From positions 1-62,545 of IMG/VR virus record IMGVR_UViG_3300046694_000164: 62,545 nucleotides of DNA. One strand, 5' to 3'. The notes under the pieces were generated by a model. That model saw only the letters and a program-made list of their open reading frames with translations, ran no database searches and was not told where the DNA came from. The position numbers and the translations under genes were made by a program. Below, in pieces: positions 365 through 62,545 of this stretch. This DNA is from a virus. Position 1 is the first letter of the stretch, and the number at the start of each line of letters is the position of its first letter.

Positions 365-631
365 ATGGCCGAACATATGGACGATGGCGGTTATGCGTTC
401 CCGAGGATGAAGGAGGAGTTTTTCTCCCACAGACTCGGAGGCATGTCGCTTCGTGACTACTTCGCCGGGCAGGCAATTGCCAGCATACCGCTTAGGTCTT
501 GGGATCACGTCGGTGGCGATGACCTAGAGCGCATCGATGCATGGGCTAAATGCGCCTATCTGGTCGCCGACGCCATGCTCCTCGCGCGTCAATCCGACAC
601 CACTGTTCCGCAGGGAGGGAAGAGCGAATGA
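365..631 (+). CDS. Small phage protein, GMSLRDYFAGQAI type
   Basis: An 88-residue soluble protein. It contains GGMSLRDYFAGQAI, a short signature I recall from many small phage and prophage proteins of unknown function, followed by a hydrophobic helix (CAYLVADAMLLAR). GAGGAGAAGGCCG directly precedes the ATG and gives a good ribosome-binding site. Its TGA overlaps the ATG of the next gene (ATGA), so the two are probably translationally coupled within the plus-strand operon. No catalytic motif is visible. Confidence 0.7.
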   Translation: MAEHMDDGGYAFPRMKEEFFSHRLGGMSLRDYFAGQAIASIPLRSWDHVGGDDLERIDAWAKCAYLVADAMLLARQSDTTVPQGGKSE

Positions 632-1224
632 ACGTTGAATTGAAGCCCTGCCCGTTCTGCGGGAAAGAACCGAATTTTACCTCGGCCACAGACCTGAAAG
701 ACAACTTTGACCATGGGTTTACTATCTGGTGTGGCGAATGCGGCATCAAAATGGAAGATGAGTACCGTGGCGATGTCGCCGGTCGTTGGAACAGGCGATT
801 TCTGTTTGATTCCTTGGAAGATGAAAAGCAGCGCATTATCGCCGAAGCTGAACGACTGCTCCAGACGGTGGAGCAATTCGAGGTAACGGAGCCTTACGGC
901 TACGTCTTCCAGCACGAAGAAACGGGTCTTAAACAGGTTGTTGAAGTCCAGCAGGTCGAGTGGGGATTCGAAAAGAATAACCCTCGCTGGCAGCGGATAG
1001 GGCCTGTGTATCTCCGACCACAGTCAGCAGCCGTGAGGGATGAGACAACGGCGCCCGTTCATAAAGTCGCTCTGTCGCGAAACCAAGCGGCGGCTCTTTC
1101 AGACTACGTTACCAAGAAATACGGCAATCAATTTGAGCCAGACGATTGGCTGGCGTATTGGACTGATATCAGTTCTTTCATTCTCGGCCAAGTCGAGGCC
1201 TTCCCGCCGGAGGGCTCAGAATGA
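628..1224 (+). CDS. Lar-like zinc-ribbon protein with C-terminal extension
   Basis: 198 residues from the ATG at 628, which overlaps the previous stop; the longer frame from 550 has no support. The N-terminus KPCPFCGKEP with a second pair CGEC and the closing WNRR is the Lar (restriction alleviation) zinc-ribbon pattern. In the Rac prophage, Lar modulates type I restriction and modification. The rest (about residues 80-198) contains EPYGYVFQHEETG and a W-x9-W stretch, typical of small phage early proteins of unknown role. A true Lar function is inferred only. Confidence 0.6.
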   Translation: MNVELKPCPFCGKEPNFTSATDLKDNFDHGFTIWCGECGIKMEDEYRGDVAGRWNRRFLFDSLEDEKQRIIAEAERLLQTVEQFEVTEPYGYVFQHEETGLKQVVEVQQVEWGFEKNNPRWQRIGPVYLRPQSAAVRDETTAPVHKVALSRNQAAALSDYVTKKYGNQFEPDDWLAYWTDISSFILGQVEAFPPEGSE

Positions 1225-5853: not shown

Positions 5854-6084
5854 TTAGGTGGGGTTGAGGATTGCTTTGAGGACCGTGATGCAGCCAAGTG
5901 CCGCTAGCGGTAAGCCACTGGCCTTACATACCTTGGCCTCCCTGTCTGCCGCATCCGCGCAACGCTGGCGCTCTGCGAGGATGGCTCGGGCGATCGTCAT
6001 TGACCAAGGCTCGCCGCTTTCAAAGTTTTCTCTGACATAGTCTTTCGCGAGTGCAACGCGCACTTCATCAGGAATCTCACCCAT
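5854..6084 (-). CDS. Small helical hypothetical protein
   Basis: 76 residues, the last gene of the leftward accessory operon. The helical segment TIARAILAERQRCADAADREA is a pattern common in phage-encoded small proteins of unknown function; a hydrophobic stretch (GLPLAALGCITVLKAIL) follows. It overlaps the end of the upstream gene by 8 bases. No motif points to a role. Confidence 0.5.
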   Translation of the reverse strand: MGEIPDEVRVALAKDYVRENFESGEPWSMTIARAILAERQRCADAADREAKVCKASGLPLAALGCITVLKAILNPT

Positions 6085-6520
6085 ACCGGCGCAGCGCCTC
6101 CTCTTGGTTATCGTTTGCCGCCACCTTCAGCCGCTCGATCGCTTCTCCAGCCGACGAGCAACGCGGACGATCATCGATCAACTTGCCGCTGGCCGCCGCA
6201 TCAATCAGGATCGCCATGCAGGCCCGAACGTGCGCAAGGTGAGACGCGCCGCTCTCTGGATCTACGTCCTCACCTGAGAACCATTGAAGCAAATGGCGCA
6301 TCGCCGCGCTGTAGTAGGTGGTTGCGTCAACCGGATCATCCTGCCAGTTGAACGCGCCGTATTTTGCCGCGCCGAGCGCCATGACGACGCTCTCCTCGAT
6401 AAGCGCGACAGGCGGGATGAACTGCGCCGACGGCTTGCGAACACCGAAGGCCCGCTTTGGATTGGAGGATGGCATGTCGGTGATATGCATGACGCGGTTG
6501 AACATGCTGCCGTCGGTCAT
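6077..6520 (-). CDS. DUF5664-like dATP/dGTP diphosphohydrolase N-terminal domain protein
   Basis: 147 residues. The core KYGAFNWQDDPVDATTYYSA followed by MRHLLQWFSGEDVDPESG-ASHLAHV corresponds to the phage family described as the N-terminal dATP/dGTP diphosphohydrolase domain, an all-helical MazG-like pyrophosphatase. The E and D residues in EDVDPESG and the H of SHLAH are candidate metal ligands. It would lower or shape a purine dNTP pool in the infected cell. In phages that replace adenine with 2-aminoadenine a relative (MazZ) works with PurZ, but no purZ is present here. The C-terminus holds AANDN. Confidence 0.55.
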   Translation of the reverse strand: MTDGSMFNRVMHITDMPSSNPKRAFGVRKPSAQFIPPVALIEESVVMALGAAKYGAFNWQDDPVDATTYYSAAMRHLLQWFSGEDVDPESGASHLAHVRACMAILIDAAASGKLIDDRPRCSSAGEAIERLKVAANDNQEEALRRYG

Positions 6521-7822: not shown

Positions 7823-8028
7823 GCTGCCCTCCTATTCCAAGCGGCTACGGCAGCAGCCCTAGTTTCATGCAGGCATGTCTGCGCGCCGCACTCCGGTGAG
7901 ATGCCGTCGTCGCCCGCATCGCAGCAGATCCAGTCCGTGTTGCTCCATCCTGTATCATCTGGCCTGTGGTAGCTCTTGGCTGCGCTTCCGCAGTGTGGGC
8001 ACGGCAACAGGTCGCTGTCGTCAGCCAT
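7819..8028 (-). CDS. Lar-like zinc-ribbon protein
   Basis: 69 residues. Of two adjacent ATGs (8031 and 8028) the second has the better spacing to AGGAGG. The protein reads DLLPCPHCGSAAKSYHR, then WICCDAG, ECGAQTC and finishes AAVAAWNRRAA, the pattern of the Lar restriction-alleviation family: a CxxC zinc ribbon followed by the conserved A-W-N-x-R end. It is the second such protein in the genome. An anti-restriction role is inferred from the family. Confidence 0.65.
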   Translation of the reverse strand: MADDSDLLPCPHCGSAAKSYHRPDDTGWSNTDWICCDAGDDGISPECGAQTCLHETRAAAVAAWNRRAA

Positions 8029-8812
8029 CATGCGGCCTCCTGCTTCCACCAGTAAGCGCATCAAAAGTTGCGAGGAATTCCACCTCGGCCTGCTTCGGAG
8101 ACCAGCAACGGATACGCACGCCAAGCGGGTCATTATAACGAGACTGCCACGCCATCGGCGCGAGGTTGGCGGCGATCTCGTCCGCAATGATGCGGGTATC
8201 AGCTTCGTGCACTCCCCACGGCAGGCATGACGGCAGGCCAAAGCGCGGCGCTACTGCCTTCCGATAGATGTTATCTTCCGTCTCTCCGATGATTGGCGCC
8301 CTGCCTTTCACTGGCCGCCCCACGTCACCGAAGCCAGAAAGGCTTTCGGGCGCGTCGTGCAGTAGCCCGGCCAGCGCGGTCTGTGTGTCGTAGCGAGCCG
8401 CTAGGTATCGCGCGATCAGCGTGCAATGTTCGGCCACTGAGTAGTGTCGCTCCACTGCACCAGAGTAGCGGCAGATGTTCGCCAGACCATGCGCAACGCT
8501 CTCGATGAACACGTCTTCCGGTCTCGGATCGAACGGAAAGAACTTGCGGGCCGGGTAGATCTGGATGAACGGGCCGCGGCCTTGCAGACCGGAAATGCTG
8601 GCCGCATTGGGATTGTGGCGAGTGAGGCCGATATACTGGCCGCGTTTGAAGGGATTGTCTTTAGGGATGCTGTTGGCTGGCACTGCGCACCACCCAACCA
8701 ACTCATTATCATTCGCCGCGACAGGCGGCACGACTGGCTGCGCGCCGTAGCCTTCGACCATGAGCGTGTCGTCGGCGTTATAAGGTTCTGGCTGGAGACT
8801 TATAACCGACAT
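8021..8812 (-). CDS. HD-domain phosphohydrolase (YfbR-like nucleotidase type)
   Basis: 263 residues from the ATG at 8812 (GGAGG upstream), not from 8956. The HD signature is clear: HYSVAEHCTLIARYL (first His), ALAGLLHDAPESL (HD pair) and VHEADTRIIADEIAANL (last Asp). The preceding FFPFDPRPEDVFIESVAHGL is shared with phage 5'-nucleotidase-like HD proteins. It probably removes phosphate from deoxynucleoside monophosphates. With the DUF5664 protein it suggests nucleotide-pool editing. AANDN occurs near residue 33. Confidence 0.75.
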   Translation of the reverse strand: MSVISLQPEPYNADDTLMVEGYGAQPVVPPVAANDNELVGWCAVPANSIPKDNPFKRGQYIGLTRHNPNAASISGLQGRGPFIQIYPARKFFPFDPRPEDVFIESVAHGLANICRYSGAVERHYSVAEHCTLIARYLAARYDTQTALAGLLHDAPESLSGFGDVGRPVKGRAPIIGETEDNIYRKAVAPRFGLPSCLPWGVHEADTRIIADEIAANLAPMAWQSRYNDPLGVRIRCWSPKQAEVEFLATFDALTGGSRRPHDG

Positions 8813-9040: not shown

Positions 9041-9565
9041 TTAGGCAAGCGCAGTGCGACGCCGGTATGCGATAAAGCCAAATGCCAAAATGCTCATCCA
9101 AAGCTTCCCGACGATCTGACCTTCGATGAAGGCTAGAGATCCAAATGCGAGAAACAGGAACACAGCGCTGTCGATGACTGCTCCCGCCGCCCCGCTTGCG
9201 AGAACCGCAAGCCCTAGACGGCGCTCTCGCAAAGGCGCGTAGACTGCCAAGTCGGCCAACTCGGCAAGAAGGAAAGCCGCCACAGAGGCGAGCACCAGCG
9301 CCGGTGGCGCAACTAGCCACGCCAGAGCGCCGCCGATCACGATGGCTAACAGCGCCGCGCGTATCCCGCCCGCCTCGTGGACCATGTCGCGCAGCACCAT
9401 GGCAAGACCGACAAGTAGGACGCCAGACGGTGCGGTGAGGCCGAAGCCGACTGGCATGACGCACGGACCCGCAGCAAGGCAGGCTGTTCCGACATTGCCA
9501 ATCATCCAGTTTGCGGCGGGAACAGTGGCGGCAAAAGCCGCCACCAATAGAGCCAGCTTACGCAT
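9041..9565 (-). CDS. VUT/YhhQ-family membrane transporter (queuosine-precursor type)
   Basis: 174 residues with about five membrane helices. The pattern APSGVLLVGLAMVLRDMVHE, then FLLAELADLAVYAPLRER and GAAGAVIDSAVFLFLAFG, fits the vitamin/queuosine precursor transporter family (YhhQ/QPTR), whose members import preQ0 or preQ1 across the inner membrane. The conserved RDMVHE, ELADLAVY and DS-FLF positions are present. It lies one small gene away from the DpdA-like gene, so a role in supplying a 7-deazaguanine base for DNA modification is the natural reading; import of another heterocycle is possible. Confidence 0.75.
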   Translation of the reverse strand: MRKLALLVAAFAATVPAANWMIGNVGTACLAAGPCVMPVGFGLTAPSGVLLVGLAMVLRDMVHEAGGIRAALLAIVIGGALAWLVAPPALVLASVAAFLLAELADLAVYAPLRERRLGLAVLASGAAGAVIDSAVFLFLAFGSLAFIEGQIVGKLWMSILAFGFIAYRRRTALA

Positions 9566-9803
9566 AGCGATGCTGAGCCGGCGCGTTGGCGGGATCCGCG
9601 AGGTGCTTGCGCAGATCGGCAGCTAGCACCGGATTGGCTGCTTCCTTAAGATCGGCGTAAACGCCGAGTGCTTGGACGGCCTCTGGGTCGCTGCCATCAA
9701 AGGCCATAACCATGTATCGACGATCGGCAGAAATAGGCTTACCGTCGGTTCGTTCGATGATGAAGCGCGGCTCGTAGCCGCCAATATTAGCACGCGATGT
9801 CAT
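9558..9803 (-). CDS. Small hypothetical protein between transporter and DpdA-like gene
   Basis: 81 residues: PRFIIERTDGKPISADRRYMVMAFDGSDPEAVQALGVYADL, a conserved phage pattern resembling a single beta-hairpin-helix domain. It overlaps the end of the DpdA-like gene by 17 bases and the transporter start by 8, so the three are co-translated. Function unknown; its place between two likely modification genes makes an accessory role possible. Confidence 0.55.
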   Translation of the reverse strand: MTSRANIGGYEPRFIIERTDGKPISADRRYMVMAFDGSDPEAVQALGVYADLKEAANPVLAADLRKHLADPANAPAQHRYA

Positions 9804-10533
9804 GAAATAGGTCTCCTATGTTGTCGTTTGCCGGTTTCATTACCCACCGAGGCGGGCACTGTATGGCGTCGATCCGCCGAGCCATTCTTTCAGGGCATAC
9901 CTCGCTGCCCTTGTTCTTGAAATTTCTTGCAACGTTGGTGCTATCTGCGCTGGCGAACGGCCAGACGTCTCCGCACACGGCTAAGCCGCGAAGCATGTGG
10001 ATCCAAGGCAGATGGCCGAAATGGCGGATGAGCGCGTTGAAAGCTTCATCTACCCTTCTGGCCCACTTTTCGGAACCGACCTGCCAGTACGCACCGGCAG
10101 AGCCAAAACAGATTTTTCCAAAGCCCAACTCGACCAGGGCGATAAGATGCTCGATCGGCTCGTCGAGATGCCACACAACTGCCGCCACCTCCTTTCGGAA
10201 TGGCCACTGCTTTATGAGCGCGAGATTATCCTCGACGCCACCGCCGATGACGTCAGGAACGACGGCCCAGTGTGGATGCCCTAACTTAGGCTCAACCCAA
10301 GCATAGAACTTGGACCAATTAGTCTGAGCCTCTGCCTTCAACCCATTGGCTATCCGCGCCAAGCGACGCTTATAGAAAACGTACTCGCCATTATCCCACG
10401 CGATTGACTGCCCGTTAAGCAGGCACCACTCCGCATCGCCAGGATTCGCGAAAGAGACGCAGAAGTTCTTTCCGGCCATCTTCATCATTTCGGAGCGCGG
10501 CGTGAGCGGCGTTCCGTGGTAATGGATGGTCAT
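9787..10533 (-). CDS. dpdA: DpdA-like DNA guanine transglycosylase (TGT fold)
   Basis: 248 residues. Conserved segments in order: IHYHGTPLTP, FCVSFANPGD, SIAWDNGEYVFY (aligning with the substrate-binding Asp-Gly loop of tRNA-guanine transglycosylases), WAVVPDVIGGGVEDN, VWHLDEPIEHLIALVELGF, ICFGSAGAYW, PWIHMLRGLAV and FASADSTNVARN, whose Asp is the candidate nucleophile. This is the pattern of phage TGT paralogues (DpdA) that exchange guanine in DNA for a 7-deazaguanine such as preQ0. No queC/D/E or folE genes are seen, so precursor would come from the host or via the nearby transporter. The assignment is by motif memory. The C-terminus contains PANDN. Confidence 0.65.
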   Translation of the reverse strand: MTIHYHGTPLTPRSEMMKMAGKNFCVSFANPGDAEWCLLNGQSIAWDNGEYVFYKRRLARIANGLKAEAQTNWSKFYAWVEPKLGHPHWAVVPDVIGGGVEDNLALIKQWPFRKEVAAVVWHLDEPIEHLIALVELGFGKICFGSAGAYWQVGSEKWARRVDEAFNALIRHFGHLPWIHMLRGLAVCGDVWPFASADSTNVARNFKNKGSEVCPERMARRIDAIQCPPRWVMKPANDNIGDLFHDIAC

Positions 10534-10763
10534 GGTCTTCTCGTTTCTATTTCGACGCCCTGATGTGTCGCGATGATGACCTGTACGCCGCCCAACGCTG
10601 ATAACCTATCGGCCAAATCCTCCTGATGTGACGGGCCTGCGTCGCAGATGGCGCGAATCTTCTCGGCAAGTATTTTCCCCGGCGACGTTATCGTCAGGTC
10701 ATAAGTGACCGTCGTTTCGTCCGTTGGACAAACGCAGTTGAAGCGGTAGCGGTAGATGTTCAC
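10530..10763 (-). CDS. Small hypothetical protein
   Basis: 77 residues: IYRYRFNCVCPTDETTVTY, DLTITSPGKILAEKIRAIC and a short beta tail. The N-C-x-C-P segment and alternating hydrophobics suggest a small alpha/beta fold. It overlaps both neighbours by ATGA, consistent with the tight operon. No family function known to me. Confidence 0.5.
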   Translation of the reverse strand: MNIYRYRFNCVCPTDETTVTYDLTITSPGKILAEKIRAICDAGPSHQEDLADRLSALGGVQVIIATHQGVEIETRRP

Positions 10764-44540: not shown

Positions 44541-44917
44541 AACGGCGCCTCGCGCAAAGCCTCCCGCACACCCTGAGCACAGCCTTCCCATGCTGCGCGC
44601 ACCAGCATTAACTGCATGAGCTCGTCATAGTGTGCTAGCTCGGTCACGCCACCATTGGCGGCGATCCACTCGCCGACGGCCTCGACGCCCTTCTCGAGCG
44701 CCTTCACTTCGTACAAGCTAATTCTGTCCAACTTCGTGAGGTCTCCTGTTGCGACGATACATGGCTTGCAGAGAAATCCTGGATCCTTTGAGCCCGGCGT
44801 GCTGCGGCCGAGTCCTATCGCGTACATCCCGCAAACTTTACAGACGGTGGGGTTGTGGTTTTCGTCAACCGTCGGTGTGAACGGCAGTATCGGGCGGCCG
44901 GTTGGGAGTTTGGTCAT
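44537..44917 (-). CDS. DUF6511-like zinc-finger phage protein
   Basis: 126 residues. VCKVCGMYAIGLGR and GFLCKPCIVATGDL form a four-cysteine zinc site; LYEVKALEKGVEAVGEWIAA followed by GGVTELAHYDELMQLMLVRA completes a pattern I associate with DUF6511 proteins next to phage methyltransferases. It overlaps both neighbouring methyltransferase genes, so it may act with them. Confidence 0.6.
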   Translation of the reverse strand: MTKLPTGRPILPFTPTVDENHNPTVCKVCGMYAIGLGRSTPGSKDPGFLCKPCIVATGDLTKLDRISLYEVKALEKGVEAVGEWIAANGGVTELAHYDELMQLMLVRAAWEGCAQGVREALREAPF

Positions 44918-45741
44918 GCTGCCACCGCGGAGGGGGTGGCTTGGGTGGGGGTGTTGTCGTTGTCACCGACTGGTGACGCGTCGAACATGCTAACCGGCTT
45001 CACCTTCTTCGGCCGGTCAACAAACATGTCACCCTGCGCATAAGCTTTCGCTATGCGGTCGCAAGCCACGTCGAAATACTTCGGATCCAGCTCAATGCCG
45101 ATAAACTTCCGGCCCATCTTGGCACACGCAACGCCAGTCGTGCCACTGCCCATGAAAGGATCTAGGATTGTCTGGCCGGGGTTGGTAAAGTCCTGCAGAA
45201 GCTCTCGCATCAGCGGGATGGGCTTTTCTGTGGGGTGACGGCCATCGCGGTCGCGCTGGTTGGTGAGGTGGGTATAGACGCCACGCTTGCCGCCTGCGTT
45301 CCATTTGGCGTGGCCGGTGCCATTCCATGCGGTGACGAAGCACTCCGCGCCCTGCCCCGGTCCCTGCCCGTTTAACTGCGGTGTCGCGTCAGGCTTAACC
45401 CACAGGCAGCCGCGCTTGTACTTCATTGGTGAGGCATTGATTGCTTCTGCCCAATATGCGACGCCTTCAATGGTGCAGAACGCGATAAACCAGCCGGTGC
45501 AGACGCGGTGGGCAGCATCTACAACTGACTGGCGGATGGTGTCGATAGAAGAGAAATCCAAGCCTTTTAGGTCTGGACCCTTATCTGCGCGGACCCGTCC
45601 GCGCAGACTATTCTTCGACGCATGCAAACTTTCTTCATAAGGCGGGTCGCTTATGACGTGATCGACAGCCTCCAACGAAGCCATAACCTCGAGGCAATCC
45701 GCATTATACAGCGTCGCATCGCCGATGCGCTCTACTCTCAT
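44914..45741 (-). CDS. DNA N6-adenine/N4-cytosine methyltransferase
   Basis: 275 residues from the ATG at 45741 (AGGAG 7 bases upstream). Catalytic motif DHVISDPPYEESLH (DPPY), target loop, HPTEKPIPLMRELLQDFTNP, and the SAM-binding motif ILDPFMGSGTTGVACAKMGR with FIGIELDPKYF. The order IV-then-I makes it a beta-class enzyme, shorter than the cell-cycle methylase CcrM and without its C-terminal domain. The C-terminus has GDNDNTPTQATPSAVAA. Confidence 0.88.
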   Translation of the reverse strand: MRVERIGDATLYNADCLEVMASLEAVDHVISDPPYEESLHASKNSLRGRVRADKGPDLKGLDFSSIDTIRQSVVDAAHRVCTGWFIAFCTIEGVAYWAEAINASPMKYKRGCLWVKPDATPQLNGQGPGQGAECFVTAWNGTGHAKWNAGGKRGVYTHLTNQRDRDGRHPTEKPIPLMRELLQDFTNPGQTILDPFMGSGTTGVACAKMGRKFIGIELDPKYFDVACDRIAKAYAQGDMFVDRPKKVKPVSMFDASPVGDNDNTPTQATPSAVAA

Positions 45742-62081: not shown

Positions 62082-62545
62082 ATGGCAAAGAGAGCCACCA
62101 AGACTGCTGCCGTGCATACCGAAGTGCAGACGGAAGAAGCCGCGAAGCCGGTAGAGCTTGCGACATACAAGGGCTTTGGCGCTGACTGGCAGTGCCGTGG
62201 CTTTCAATACGCGATCGGCGAAACATACAAAACAGAACGTCGCGTCGTCCGGTGCGGCGAAGGAGCGTTCCACTCCGTTTTGATGCCGCTTGACGCATGG
62301 AGCTACTACGGCCCAGCAAATAGCAAGTTTGCACTCACAAAGGTTGGCGGCAGCATCGTCGATGACCCAGATGGTGACAGCAAAATCGCATCTGCAGAAA
62401 TCACCATCAGTGCCGAATTGAAGCTTCCAGAATTCATTCGCAAGGCAGTCGCATGGATCGTCGACGCAGCAAAGGAGCGTGTCACAACCGGCTACCGTGC
62501 CCATGCCGCGAGCACCGGCTACCGTGCCCATGCCGCGAGCACCGG
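62082..62545 (+). CDS. DUF7666-like repeat protein, N-terminal part (continues at left end)
   Basis: Starts at the ATG at 62082 after TTGAGGAGACAGACATC. The first 154 codons read KRATKTAAVHTEVQTEE, TYKGFGADWQCRGFQYAIGE, VVRCGEGAFHSVLMPLDAWS, YYGPANSKFALTKVGGSIVD and IASAEITISAELKLPEFIRK, the pattern of the DUF7666 domain in phage proteins. Then 9-residue repeats (G-Y-R-A-H-A-A-S-T) begin and run off the window, continuing at 22-283. The joined protein is 241 residues with at least five repeat units. Role unknown. Confidence 0.75.
   Translation, partial: MAKRATKTAAVHTEVQTEEAAKPVELATYKGFGADWQCRGFQYAIGETYKTERRVVRCGEGAFHSVLMPLDAWSYYGPANSKFALTKVGGSIVDDPDGDSKIASAEITISAELKLPEFIRKAVAWIVDAAKERVTTGYRAHAASTGYRAHAAST
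62525..62545. repeat. 21-bp terminal direct repeat (right copy)
   Basis: Identical to bases 1-21. See the left copy. Both fall inside the 27-bp coding repeats of the DUF7666-like gene, so the join point is within a tandem array. Confidence 0.85.

What the first reader, a model, noticed from the sequence alone, without database searches (positions are those of the whole stretch)
9041..10533. DpdA-like transglycosylase beside a YhhQ-like transporter: probable 7-deazaguanine DNA modification
Seen: a 248-aa protein with TGT-like loops (WDNGEYVF, VVPDVIGGG, ASADSTNVARN), a small linking gene and a five-helix VUT/YhhQ protein, all overlapping. Known: DpdA-type TGT paralogues insert preQ0-type bases into phage DNA, and YhhQ imports preQ0/preQ1. 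Inferred: this phage replaces part of its guanine and takes the precursor from the host, since no queC/D/E or folE genes are present. The 81-aa protein between them could be a new accessory factor.
Basis: partly seen in the sequence, partly recalled or inferred. Interest (0 to 1): 0.8.

Follow-up and report, generated by a model that had tools for sequence, protein, structure and literature searches.

The report
Phage guanine-swapping DNA modification cassette
A soil phage carries a compact four-gene operon that probably imports a guanine look-alike, swaps it into the phage's own DNA and then chemically finishes it there, which would hide the DNA from bacterial defences without the phage making the precursor itself.

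Summary
The 248-aa protein (9787-10533, -) falls in the same PHROG as the experimentally tested DpdA enzymes of phages 9g and CAjan, and keeps the TGT-type aspartates (D47, D94, D197) in all 73 relatives aligned. The 174-aa protein is a Vut_1/YhhQ transporter. The 62.5-kb record has no detectable QueC/D/E/F or FolE.

The missed gene is p77 (10530-10763, -). Its model (pLDDT 96) has the T-fold, and its profile finds one solved protein, archaeosine synthase QueF-Like (E 5e-6), with the catalytic Cys and two Glu aligned. I predict that preQ0 is taken up, inserted by DpdA, then converted in the DNA, most likely to deoxyarchaeosine, otherwise dPreQ1.

The linkage is real. YhhQ lies beside this DpdA in 51 of 59 non-redundant viral clusters. 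Loci chosen only for p77 carry DpdA in 20 of 20; loci chosen only for YhhQ carry DpdA or a TGT-motif gene in 54 of 55. The 81-aa gene is also cassette-linked, function unknown.

DpdA modification is known, and YhhQ in such phages has been reported. The compact cassette and miniature QueF-Like family look new. No chemistry has been shown.

The parts
10530..10763 (-). p77: miniature QueF-Like (T-fold) protein, 77 aa, GTG start; predicted to convert preQ0 (most likely already in DNA) to archaeosine.
   Evidence: AF2 pLDDT 96, strand-strand-helix-helix-strand-strand; Foldseek best hit 5jyx/5k0p QueF-Like E 1.1e-4; VIA Z 11.3, rmsd 1.6 A over 77 aa; profile hmmsearch against all PDB sequences: only 5jyx/5k0p significant, E 4.9e-6, with C12-P13 on C21-P22, E34 on E46, E48 on E63; phrog_37496, unknown function; Shine-Dalgarno-like AGGAGG upstream
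9787..10533 (-). DpdA-type DNA guanine transglycosylase, compact, 248 aa; overlaps p77 by 4 bp
   Evidence: phrog_887 E 4.4e-34, the same PHROG as DpdA of 9g and CAjan; invariant D47, D94, H179, D197 in 73 relatives; AF2 pLDDT 93; VIA Z 13.9-14.0 to TGTs and 13.0 to the DNA preQ0 insertase 7ui4; no CxCxxC zinc motif in 73 of 73
9558..9803 (-). acc81: 81-aa cassette protein of unknown function; overlaps dpdA by 17 bp and yhhQ by 8 bp
   Evidence: weak phrog_9572 match, E 2e-8; homologues beside dpdA in Pam5, X2_30, DMCA, A. pusense and Devosia prophages; loci chosen on acc81 alone carry DpdA in 12 of 13 clusters, the 13th a TGT-motif gene
9041..9565 (-). YhhQ/QPTR-type (Vut_1) transporter, 174 aa; predicted preQ0/preQ1 importer
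   Evidence: PF02592 E 1.5e-11, above cut-off; phrog_4899 E 1.5e-38, the same PHROG as CAjan's putative preQ0 transporter; TIGR00697 only below cut-off; close homologues beside QueC in hosts

Best explanation
This is a four-gene 7-deazaguanine DNA-modification cassette of a temperate phage, probably of a rhizobial host. In outline: the YhhQ-type protein brings preQ0 (or preQ1) into the cell to add to the host's own supply; DpdA swaps guanines in phage DNA for preQ0 by TGT chemistry, with two catalytic aspartates; p77, a miniature QueF-Like enzyme, attacks the nitrile of the inserted preQ0 with Cys12, and ammonia converts it to archaeosine, giving deoxyarchaeosine in phage DNA; the altered guanines block host restriction enzymes. 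Shown here: homologies, fold predictions, conserved catalytic residues, and gene linkage across many phages. Inferred: substrates, direction of transport, order of steps, product, and protection. The role of the 81-aa protein is unknown.
For: DpdA: same PHROG as 9g and CAjan DpdA, catalytic residues invariant in 73 sequences, fold matches include TGTs and the DNA preQ0 insertase 7ui4. CAjan lacking dpdA loses its dPreQ0 (PMC6884629). YhhQ. p77 as QueF-Like; the QueF NADPH motif is absent in 24 of 24. Linkage in both directions: YhhQ beside DpdA in 51/59 viral clusters; p77 to DpdA 20/20, acc81 to DpdA 12/13, YhhQ to DpdA 46/55, with 8 of the 9 exceptions near a TGT-motif gene instead. YhhQ state changes at least 14 times and p77 at least 17 times on the DpdA tree, so linkage is repeatedly rebuilt or kept. 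preQ0 genes sit in the same slot in relatives: QueC (L075, L077, L078), QueE (L045, L046), a QueD-like gene in phage DMCA. In phage phiLM21 the same YhhQ overlaps a Pfam DpdA gene. The same Vut_1 type lies beside QueC in host operons and in a Devosia island with a TGT-like gene and DndB-like genes. No QueC/D/E/F or FolE in the window.
Against: No chemistry was measured on this or any close relative. Two DpdA-only phages tested before were unmodified (Orion) or barely modified (7-11) (PMC6884629). Proteins called QueF-Like in phages Dp-1 and HVTV-1 gave dPreQ1, not dG+ (same paper). The QueF-Like general acid D28 (C+7) is a valine in window p77 and is Asp in only 5 of 24 members; most have Asp at C+3. 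Foldseek alone finds no significant TGT match for DpdA (best E 0.012 to other TIM barrels), and VIA ties TGTs with PdxJ at Z about 14. Hosts mostly have QueC, and often their own Vut_1, so the need for a phage transporter is not explained.
Confidence: 0.72

Rival explanations
1. Same cassette, different product: p77 acts as a reductase or on free base, so the DNA carries dPreQ1 rather than dG+, or p77 is inactive and the DNA carries dPreQ0.
For: Phage proteins predicted as QueF-Like gave dPreQ1 in Dp-1 and HVTV-1 (PMC6884629); D28 is not conserved in window p77; most cassettes lack p77, so DpdA and YhhQ must give some product without it.
Against: The QueF NADPH motif is absent in 24 of 24 p77 proteins; the only significant sequence match among solved structures is the archaeosine synthase, not QueF, and QueF scores lower in structure (Z 8.2 against 11.3).
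Confidence: 0.3
2. The transglycosylase and p77 modify tRNA (host or phage), not DNA, to favour phage translation.
For: The PHROG label is 'queuine tRNA-ribosyltransferase'; archaeal QueF-Like acts on preQ0-tRNA (PMC5485725).
Against: The closest characterised proteins are phage DNA enzymes in the same PHROG; the TGT zinc motif is absent in 73 of 73; VIA also matches the DNA preQ0 insertase 7ui4.
Confidence: 0.1
3. YhhQ is a passenger or mis-assigned: a different small-molecule transporter, or an exporter that clears preQ0, carried with dpdA by descent.
For: TIGR00697 matches only below its cut-off and the Pfam match covers about half the profile; many hosts already have Vut_1.
Against: Two divergent Vut_1 types (about 30% identical) are recruited on either side of dpdA; the linkage recurs with other TGT-type families and is rebuilt many times on the tree; the same type lies beside QueC in hosts.
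Confidence: 0.12
4. No modification is made in the natural host: the cassette is silent in the prophage or starved of precursor.
For: Orion has dpdA but no modification, and 7-11 almost none (PMC6884629).
Against: Orion's host lacks preQ0 synthesis (same paper), whereas likely hosts here have QueC (28 of 29); catalytic residues are kept across the family.
Confidence: 0.12

Closest known systems
DpdA (DpdA1) of Escherichia phages CAjan and 9g
   Same: Same PHROG (887); catalytic motifs and the His at 9g position 196 (H179 here) conserved; CAjan also encodes a phrog_4899 transporter
   Different: About 60-70 aa shorter; no FolE/QueD/QueE/QueC beside it; sits in a four-gene cassette with p77 and acc81
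Archaeosine synthase QueF-Like of Pyrobaculum calidifontis (5jyx, 5k0p)
   Same: T-fold over all 77 residues, catalytic Cys-Pro and two Glu aligned; QueF NADPH motif absent
   Different: 77 aa against 109; general acid D28 not conserved in the window; phage-borne and paired with DpdA; activity untested
YhhQ / QPTR (COG1738, PF02592) preQ0/preQ1 transporters
   Same: Vut_1 domain above Pfam cut-off
   Different: 174 aa, matches the second half of the profile best; below the TIGR00697 cut-off
Group 3 DpdA-only phages of Hutinet et al. 2019 (PMC6884629)
   Same: DpdA without phage-encoded preQ0 synthesis
   Different: That paper saw no correlation of YhhQ with any group; here YhhQ is tightly linked to one compact DpdA subfamily, and a QueF-Like protein is added
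Sphingomonas phage vB_StuS_MMDA13 (PMC7472734)
   Same: DpdA with a QueF-Like homologue; preQ0 transporters drawn in its cluster figure of related phages
   Different: Has the full FolE/QueD/QueC/QueE pathway
Bacterial dpd islands (TGT-like DpdA with DndB-like DpdB)
   Same: A Devosia island pairs a TGT-like gene with QueC and the same Vut_1 type
   Different: Multi-gene restriction-modification system with a 429-aa TGT-like protein

Membership tests
Phage DpdA (DpdA1-type transglycosylase) | Sequence family membership with tested DpdA proteins | tested here: met
   phrog_887 E 4.4e-34; 9g and CAjan DpdA in the same PHROG; core profile finds both at E about 2e-6 to 3e-6
Phage DpdA (DpdA1-type transglycosylase) | TGT catalytic aspartates and the conserved His (9g H196) | tested here: met
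   D47, D94, D197 and H179 invariant in 73 sequences; H179 aligns with the 9g His
Phage DpdA (DpdA1-type transglycosylase) | TGT-like TIM-barrel fold | tested here: inconclusive
   pLDDT 93; VIA Z 14.0 TGT and 13.0 DpdA 7ui4, tied with other TIM barrels; Foldseek not significant
Phage DpdA (DpdA1-type transglycosylase) | Inserts a 7-deazaguanine into DNA | not testable with these tools
   Needs biochemistry
Pfam PF23859 DpdA / PF01702 TGT | Match to the Pfam model | tested here: not met
   No Pfam match at E up to 1; phage X3_2's phrog_887 DpdA also lacks the match, so the window protein is filed under phrog_887 and not under these Pfam families
QueF-Like archaeosine synthase | T-fold | tested here: met
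QueF-Like archaeosine synthase | Thioimide-forming Cys | tested here: met
   C12 invariant in 24 and aligned to C21
QueF-Like archaeosine synthase | General acid Asp at Cys+7 (D28) | tested here: not met
   Val in the window; Asp in 5 of 24 members; Asp at Cys+3 in 18 of 24. p77 is therefore called a QueF-Like relative, not a proven synthase
QueF-Like archaeosine synthase | Lacks the QueF NADPH motif | tested here: met
   0 of 24 have it
YhhQ/QPTR transporter | PF02592 above gathering score | tested here: met
   45.3 bits against 27.2
YhhQ/QPTR transporter | NCBIfam TIGR00697 equivalog cut-off | tested here: not met
   39.0 bits against 50.95; so it is called YhhQ-type, not a proven queuosine-precursor transporter
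YhhQ/QPTR transporter | Transports preQ0/preQ1 | not testable with these tools
   Needs complementation assay

The most novel reading that the evidence does not exclude
A widespread, mobile 'import, insert and amidate' cassette lets many phages make deoxyarchaeosine DNA with four small genes and no precursor synthesis. It includes an unusually small QueF-Like enzyme acting on DNA and a new accessory protein family, and several divergent TGT-type enzymes pair with the same transporter.
Probability: 0.4. Interest if true: 0.8.

Novelty: new variant of a known kind. Interest (0 to 1): 0.62.

Why it matters
Phages with a DpdA but no precursor genes were the largest and least predictable group in the 2019 survey (PMC6884629). 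This cassette gives such phages a concrete, testable product and precursor route. It also adds a likely new miniature QueF-Like family, without a named function in Pfam or PHROGs, that would act on DNA. And it shows that the transporter is not random baggage but tightly tied to DNA transglycosylases in phages and, in one case, in a bacterial dpd island.

Tried and rejected
p77 as a QueD relative: considered because phage DMCA has a QueD-like gene in the same slot, but structure and profile point to QueF-Like. acc81 as a sulfatase-modifying-factor domain (the phrog_9572 label): only a weak match to a short part, not adopted. YhhQ as a patch for hosts lacking precursor or transporter: not supported, since QueC is in 28/29 host genomes and hosts of YhhQ-bearing prophages mostly have their own Vut_1. 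Single-sequence PDB search with DpdA found nothing useful; the profile search also found no TGT. The phrog_15826 proteins beside YhhQ have TGT-like motifs, but no library match supports the fold. Genome-file download was not available. Papers by Cui et al. 2023 (NAR) and de Crecy-Lagard et al. 2024 (MMBR) are not held, so prior description there cannot be excluded.

Full report
WHAT WAS CHECKED. The window is a whole IMG/VR virus record of 62,545 bp. The three reported ORFs are present on the minus strand at the stated places, and they overlap. Integrase, HTH and S24-peptidase matches among its proteins indicate a temperate phage. Pfam scans of 48 window proteins plus the 8 of the cassette region found no QueC, QueD, QueE, QueF or FolE. 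Profiles of phage QueC, QueE, QueD and FolE found nothing in any of the six frames. The record may be incomplete.

THE TRANSGLYCOSYLASE. The 248-aa protein matches phrog_887 at E 4.4e-34. DpdA of phages 9g and CAjan match the same PHROG. Deleting dpdA from CAjan abolishes its dPreQ0 (PMC6884629). An alignment of 73 relatives keeps D47, D94, H179 and D197 invariant. From knowledge of TGT these correspond to the two catalytic aspartates (D47, D197), a base-recognition aspartate (D94), and the DpdA1 histidine that DpdA2 lacks (H179). The TGT zinc motif CxCxxC is absent in all 73. The AlphaFold2 model is confident (pLDDT 93). Its fold comparison includes TGTs (Z about 14) and the DNA preQ0 insertase 7ui4 (Z 13.0), but tied with other TIM barrels, and Foldseek alone is not significant. 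Family membership therefore rests mainly on sequence.

THE TRANSPORTER. The 174-aa protein is PF02592 above cut-off and phrog_4899, the PHROG of CAjan's putative preQ0 transporter. It misses the TIGR00697 cut-off. Its transport substrate is inferred.

THE MISSED GENE. Directly upstream, overlapping dpdA by 4 bp, lies p77 (10530-10763). Its model has pLDDT 96 and the order strand-strand-helix-helix-strand-strand. The best structural match is archaeosine synthase QueF-Like: Foldseek E 1.1e-4, VIA Z 11.3, rmsd 1.6 A over all 77 residues. GTP cyclohydrolase I (Z about 10), dihydroneopterin aldolase (about 9) and QueF (8.2) follow. A profile of 24 p77 sequences, searched against all solved sequences, finds only QueF-Like (E 4.9e-6; next 0.77). 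The invariant C12-P13 falls on C21-P22, and E34 and E48 on E46 and E63. Cys21 is the conserved nucleophile implicated in the thioimide with preQ0 (PMC5485725). The QueF NADPH motif is absent in 24 of 24. The general acid at Cys+7 is kept in only 5 of 24, while 18 of 24 have Asp at Cys+3. I read p77 as a QueF-Like relative, most likely an amidating enzyme. A reductase outcome (dPreQ1), as found for Dp-1 and HVTV-1, is not excluded.

LINKAGE. Relatives were chosen on DpdA similarity alone. In 59 non-redundant viral clusters, YhhQ lies within 1.5 kb on the same strand in 51 and p77 in 14. In 58 clusters from bacterial genomes the numbers are 14 and 6. The reverse test chose loci on one accessory at a time: p77 loci had DpdA within 2 kb in 20 of 20 clusters, acc81 loci in 12 of 13, YhhQ loci in 46 of 55. 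Eight of the nine YhhQ exceptions have, directly upstream or about 400 bp upstream, a roughly 200-aa gene with TGT-like motifs (DNGG, PDVV, GADSCDGT) of phrog_15826 in the three scanned; the ninth is cut by the contig end. In phage phiLM21 the same YhhQ overlaps a Pfam DpdA gene (PF23859, E 2.4e-43). Shuffled ORFs gave no hits at these thresholds. On a DpdA tree of 79 rows the YhhQ state changes at least 14 times and the p77 state at least 17 times. Repeated re-linking in different orders argues for shared function rather than simple descent. In relatives, preQ0 genes occupy the same slot: QueC (L075, L077, L078), QueE (L045, L046) and a QueD-like gene in Caulobacter phage DMCA.

THE 81-aa GENE. 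Close homologues lie beside dpdA in Pam5, X2_30, DMCA and the Agrobacterium pusense and Devosia prophages. One more is in Rhizobium phage X3_2, which has the full FolE/QueD/QueC/QueE set with a DpdA and a phrog_4899 transporter elsewhere. Distant relatives occur in mycobacterial prophages without a dpdA annotated nearby. It is cassette-linked; its function is unknown.

HOSTS. Prophages with the same gene order as the window (dpdA-acc81-yhhQ) are in Agrobacterium pusense and Devosia. Of 29 host genomes, 28 have QueC and all have TGT, so precursor is usually available. Seventeen have Vut_1, including most hosts of YhhQ-bearing prophages. The phage transporter therefore probably adds to supply rather than replacing a missing function. 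The same Vut_1 type overlaps or adjoins QueC in several hosts, including a QueE-QueD-QueC-Vut_1 run and a Devosia island with a TGT-like gene and two DndB-like genes.

MECHANISM AND LIMITS. Proposed: import of preQ0; insertion in DNA by DpdA; conversion to archaeosine by p77; protection against restriction. Homology, fold and linkage are shown. Substrates, order, product and benefit are inferred. The 2019 survey (PMC6884629) described DpdA-only phages and noted YhhQ in some phages without correlation; MMDA13 combined DpdA and QueF-Like with full synthesis (PMC7472734). The tight YhhQ linkage, the miniature QueF-Like family and the four-gene cassette were not found in the literature I could read, but two key papers were not available. 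Verdict: a real and probably functional new variant of a known kind.

Noticed in passing
L284:2394-2990, L287:2415-3008, L339:1958-2587, L340:2354-2953: A roughly 200-aa family (phrog_15826, unknown function) with TGT-like motifs (DNGG, PDVV, CQDG, GADSCDGT) replaces DpdA beside YhhQ; a possible further class of minimal transglycosylase. The fold is untested.
   Followed up: partly
L003:5701-6099; also L027, L028, L034, L065: A nucleoside 2-deoxyribosyltransferase-like gene (PF05014, above cut-off in L003) sits between dpdA and yhhQ in several relatives.
   Followed up: partly
L172:4441-9269: Devosia island with a TGT-like gene, two DndB-like genes, QueC and a phage-type Vut_1 transporter: a likely bacterial dpd island with its own preQ0 transporter.
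   Followed up: partly
window 6077-6520 and 8021-8812 (-): A dATP/dGTP diphosphohydrolase-type protein (likely carrier of the PF18909 match) and an HD protein labelled deoxyribonucleoside 5'-monophosphate phosphatase (phrog_318) lie near the cassette; they may adjust purine deoxynucleotide pools.
   Followed up: no
window 628-1224 (+) and 44914-45741 (-): A restriction-alleviation (Lar-type) protein, and a gene that is the likely carrier of the DNA methylase match (PF01555): further possible anti-restriction functions in the same phage.
   Followed up: no
L132:4001-4363: In Ensifer aridi the dpdA gene reads only 120 aa in one frame before a stop, although similarity continues; it may be a broken copy or an assembly error, with yhhQ open downstream.
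   Followed up: no
window ends, about 1-60 and 62497-62545: Short repeats (ATGCCGCGAGCACCGG-like) recur at both ends of the record; the ends may be repetitive or the assembly incomplete.
   Followed up: no
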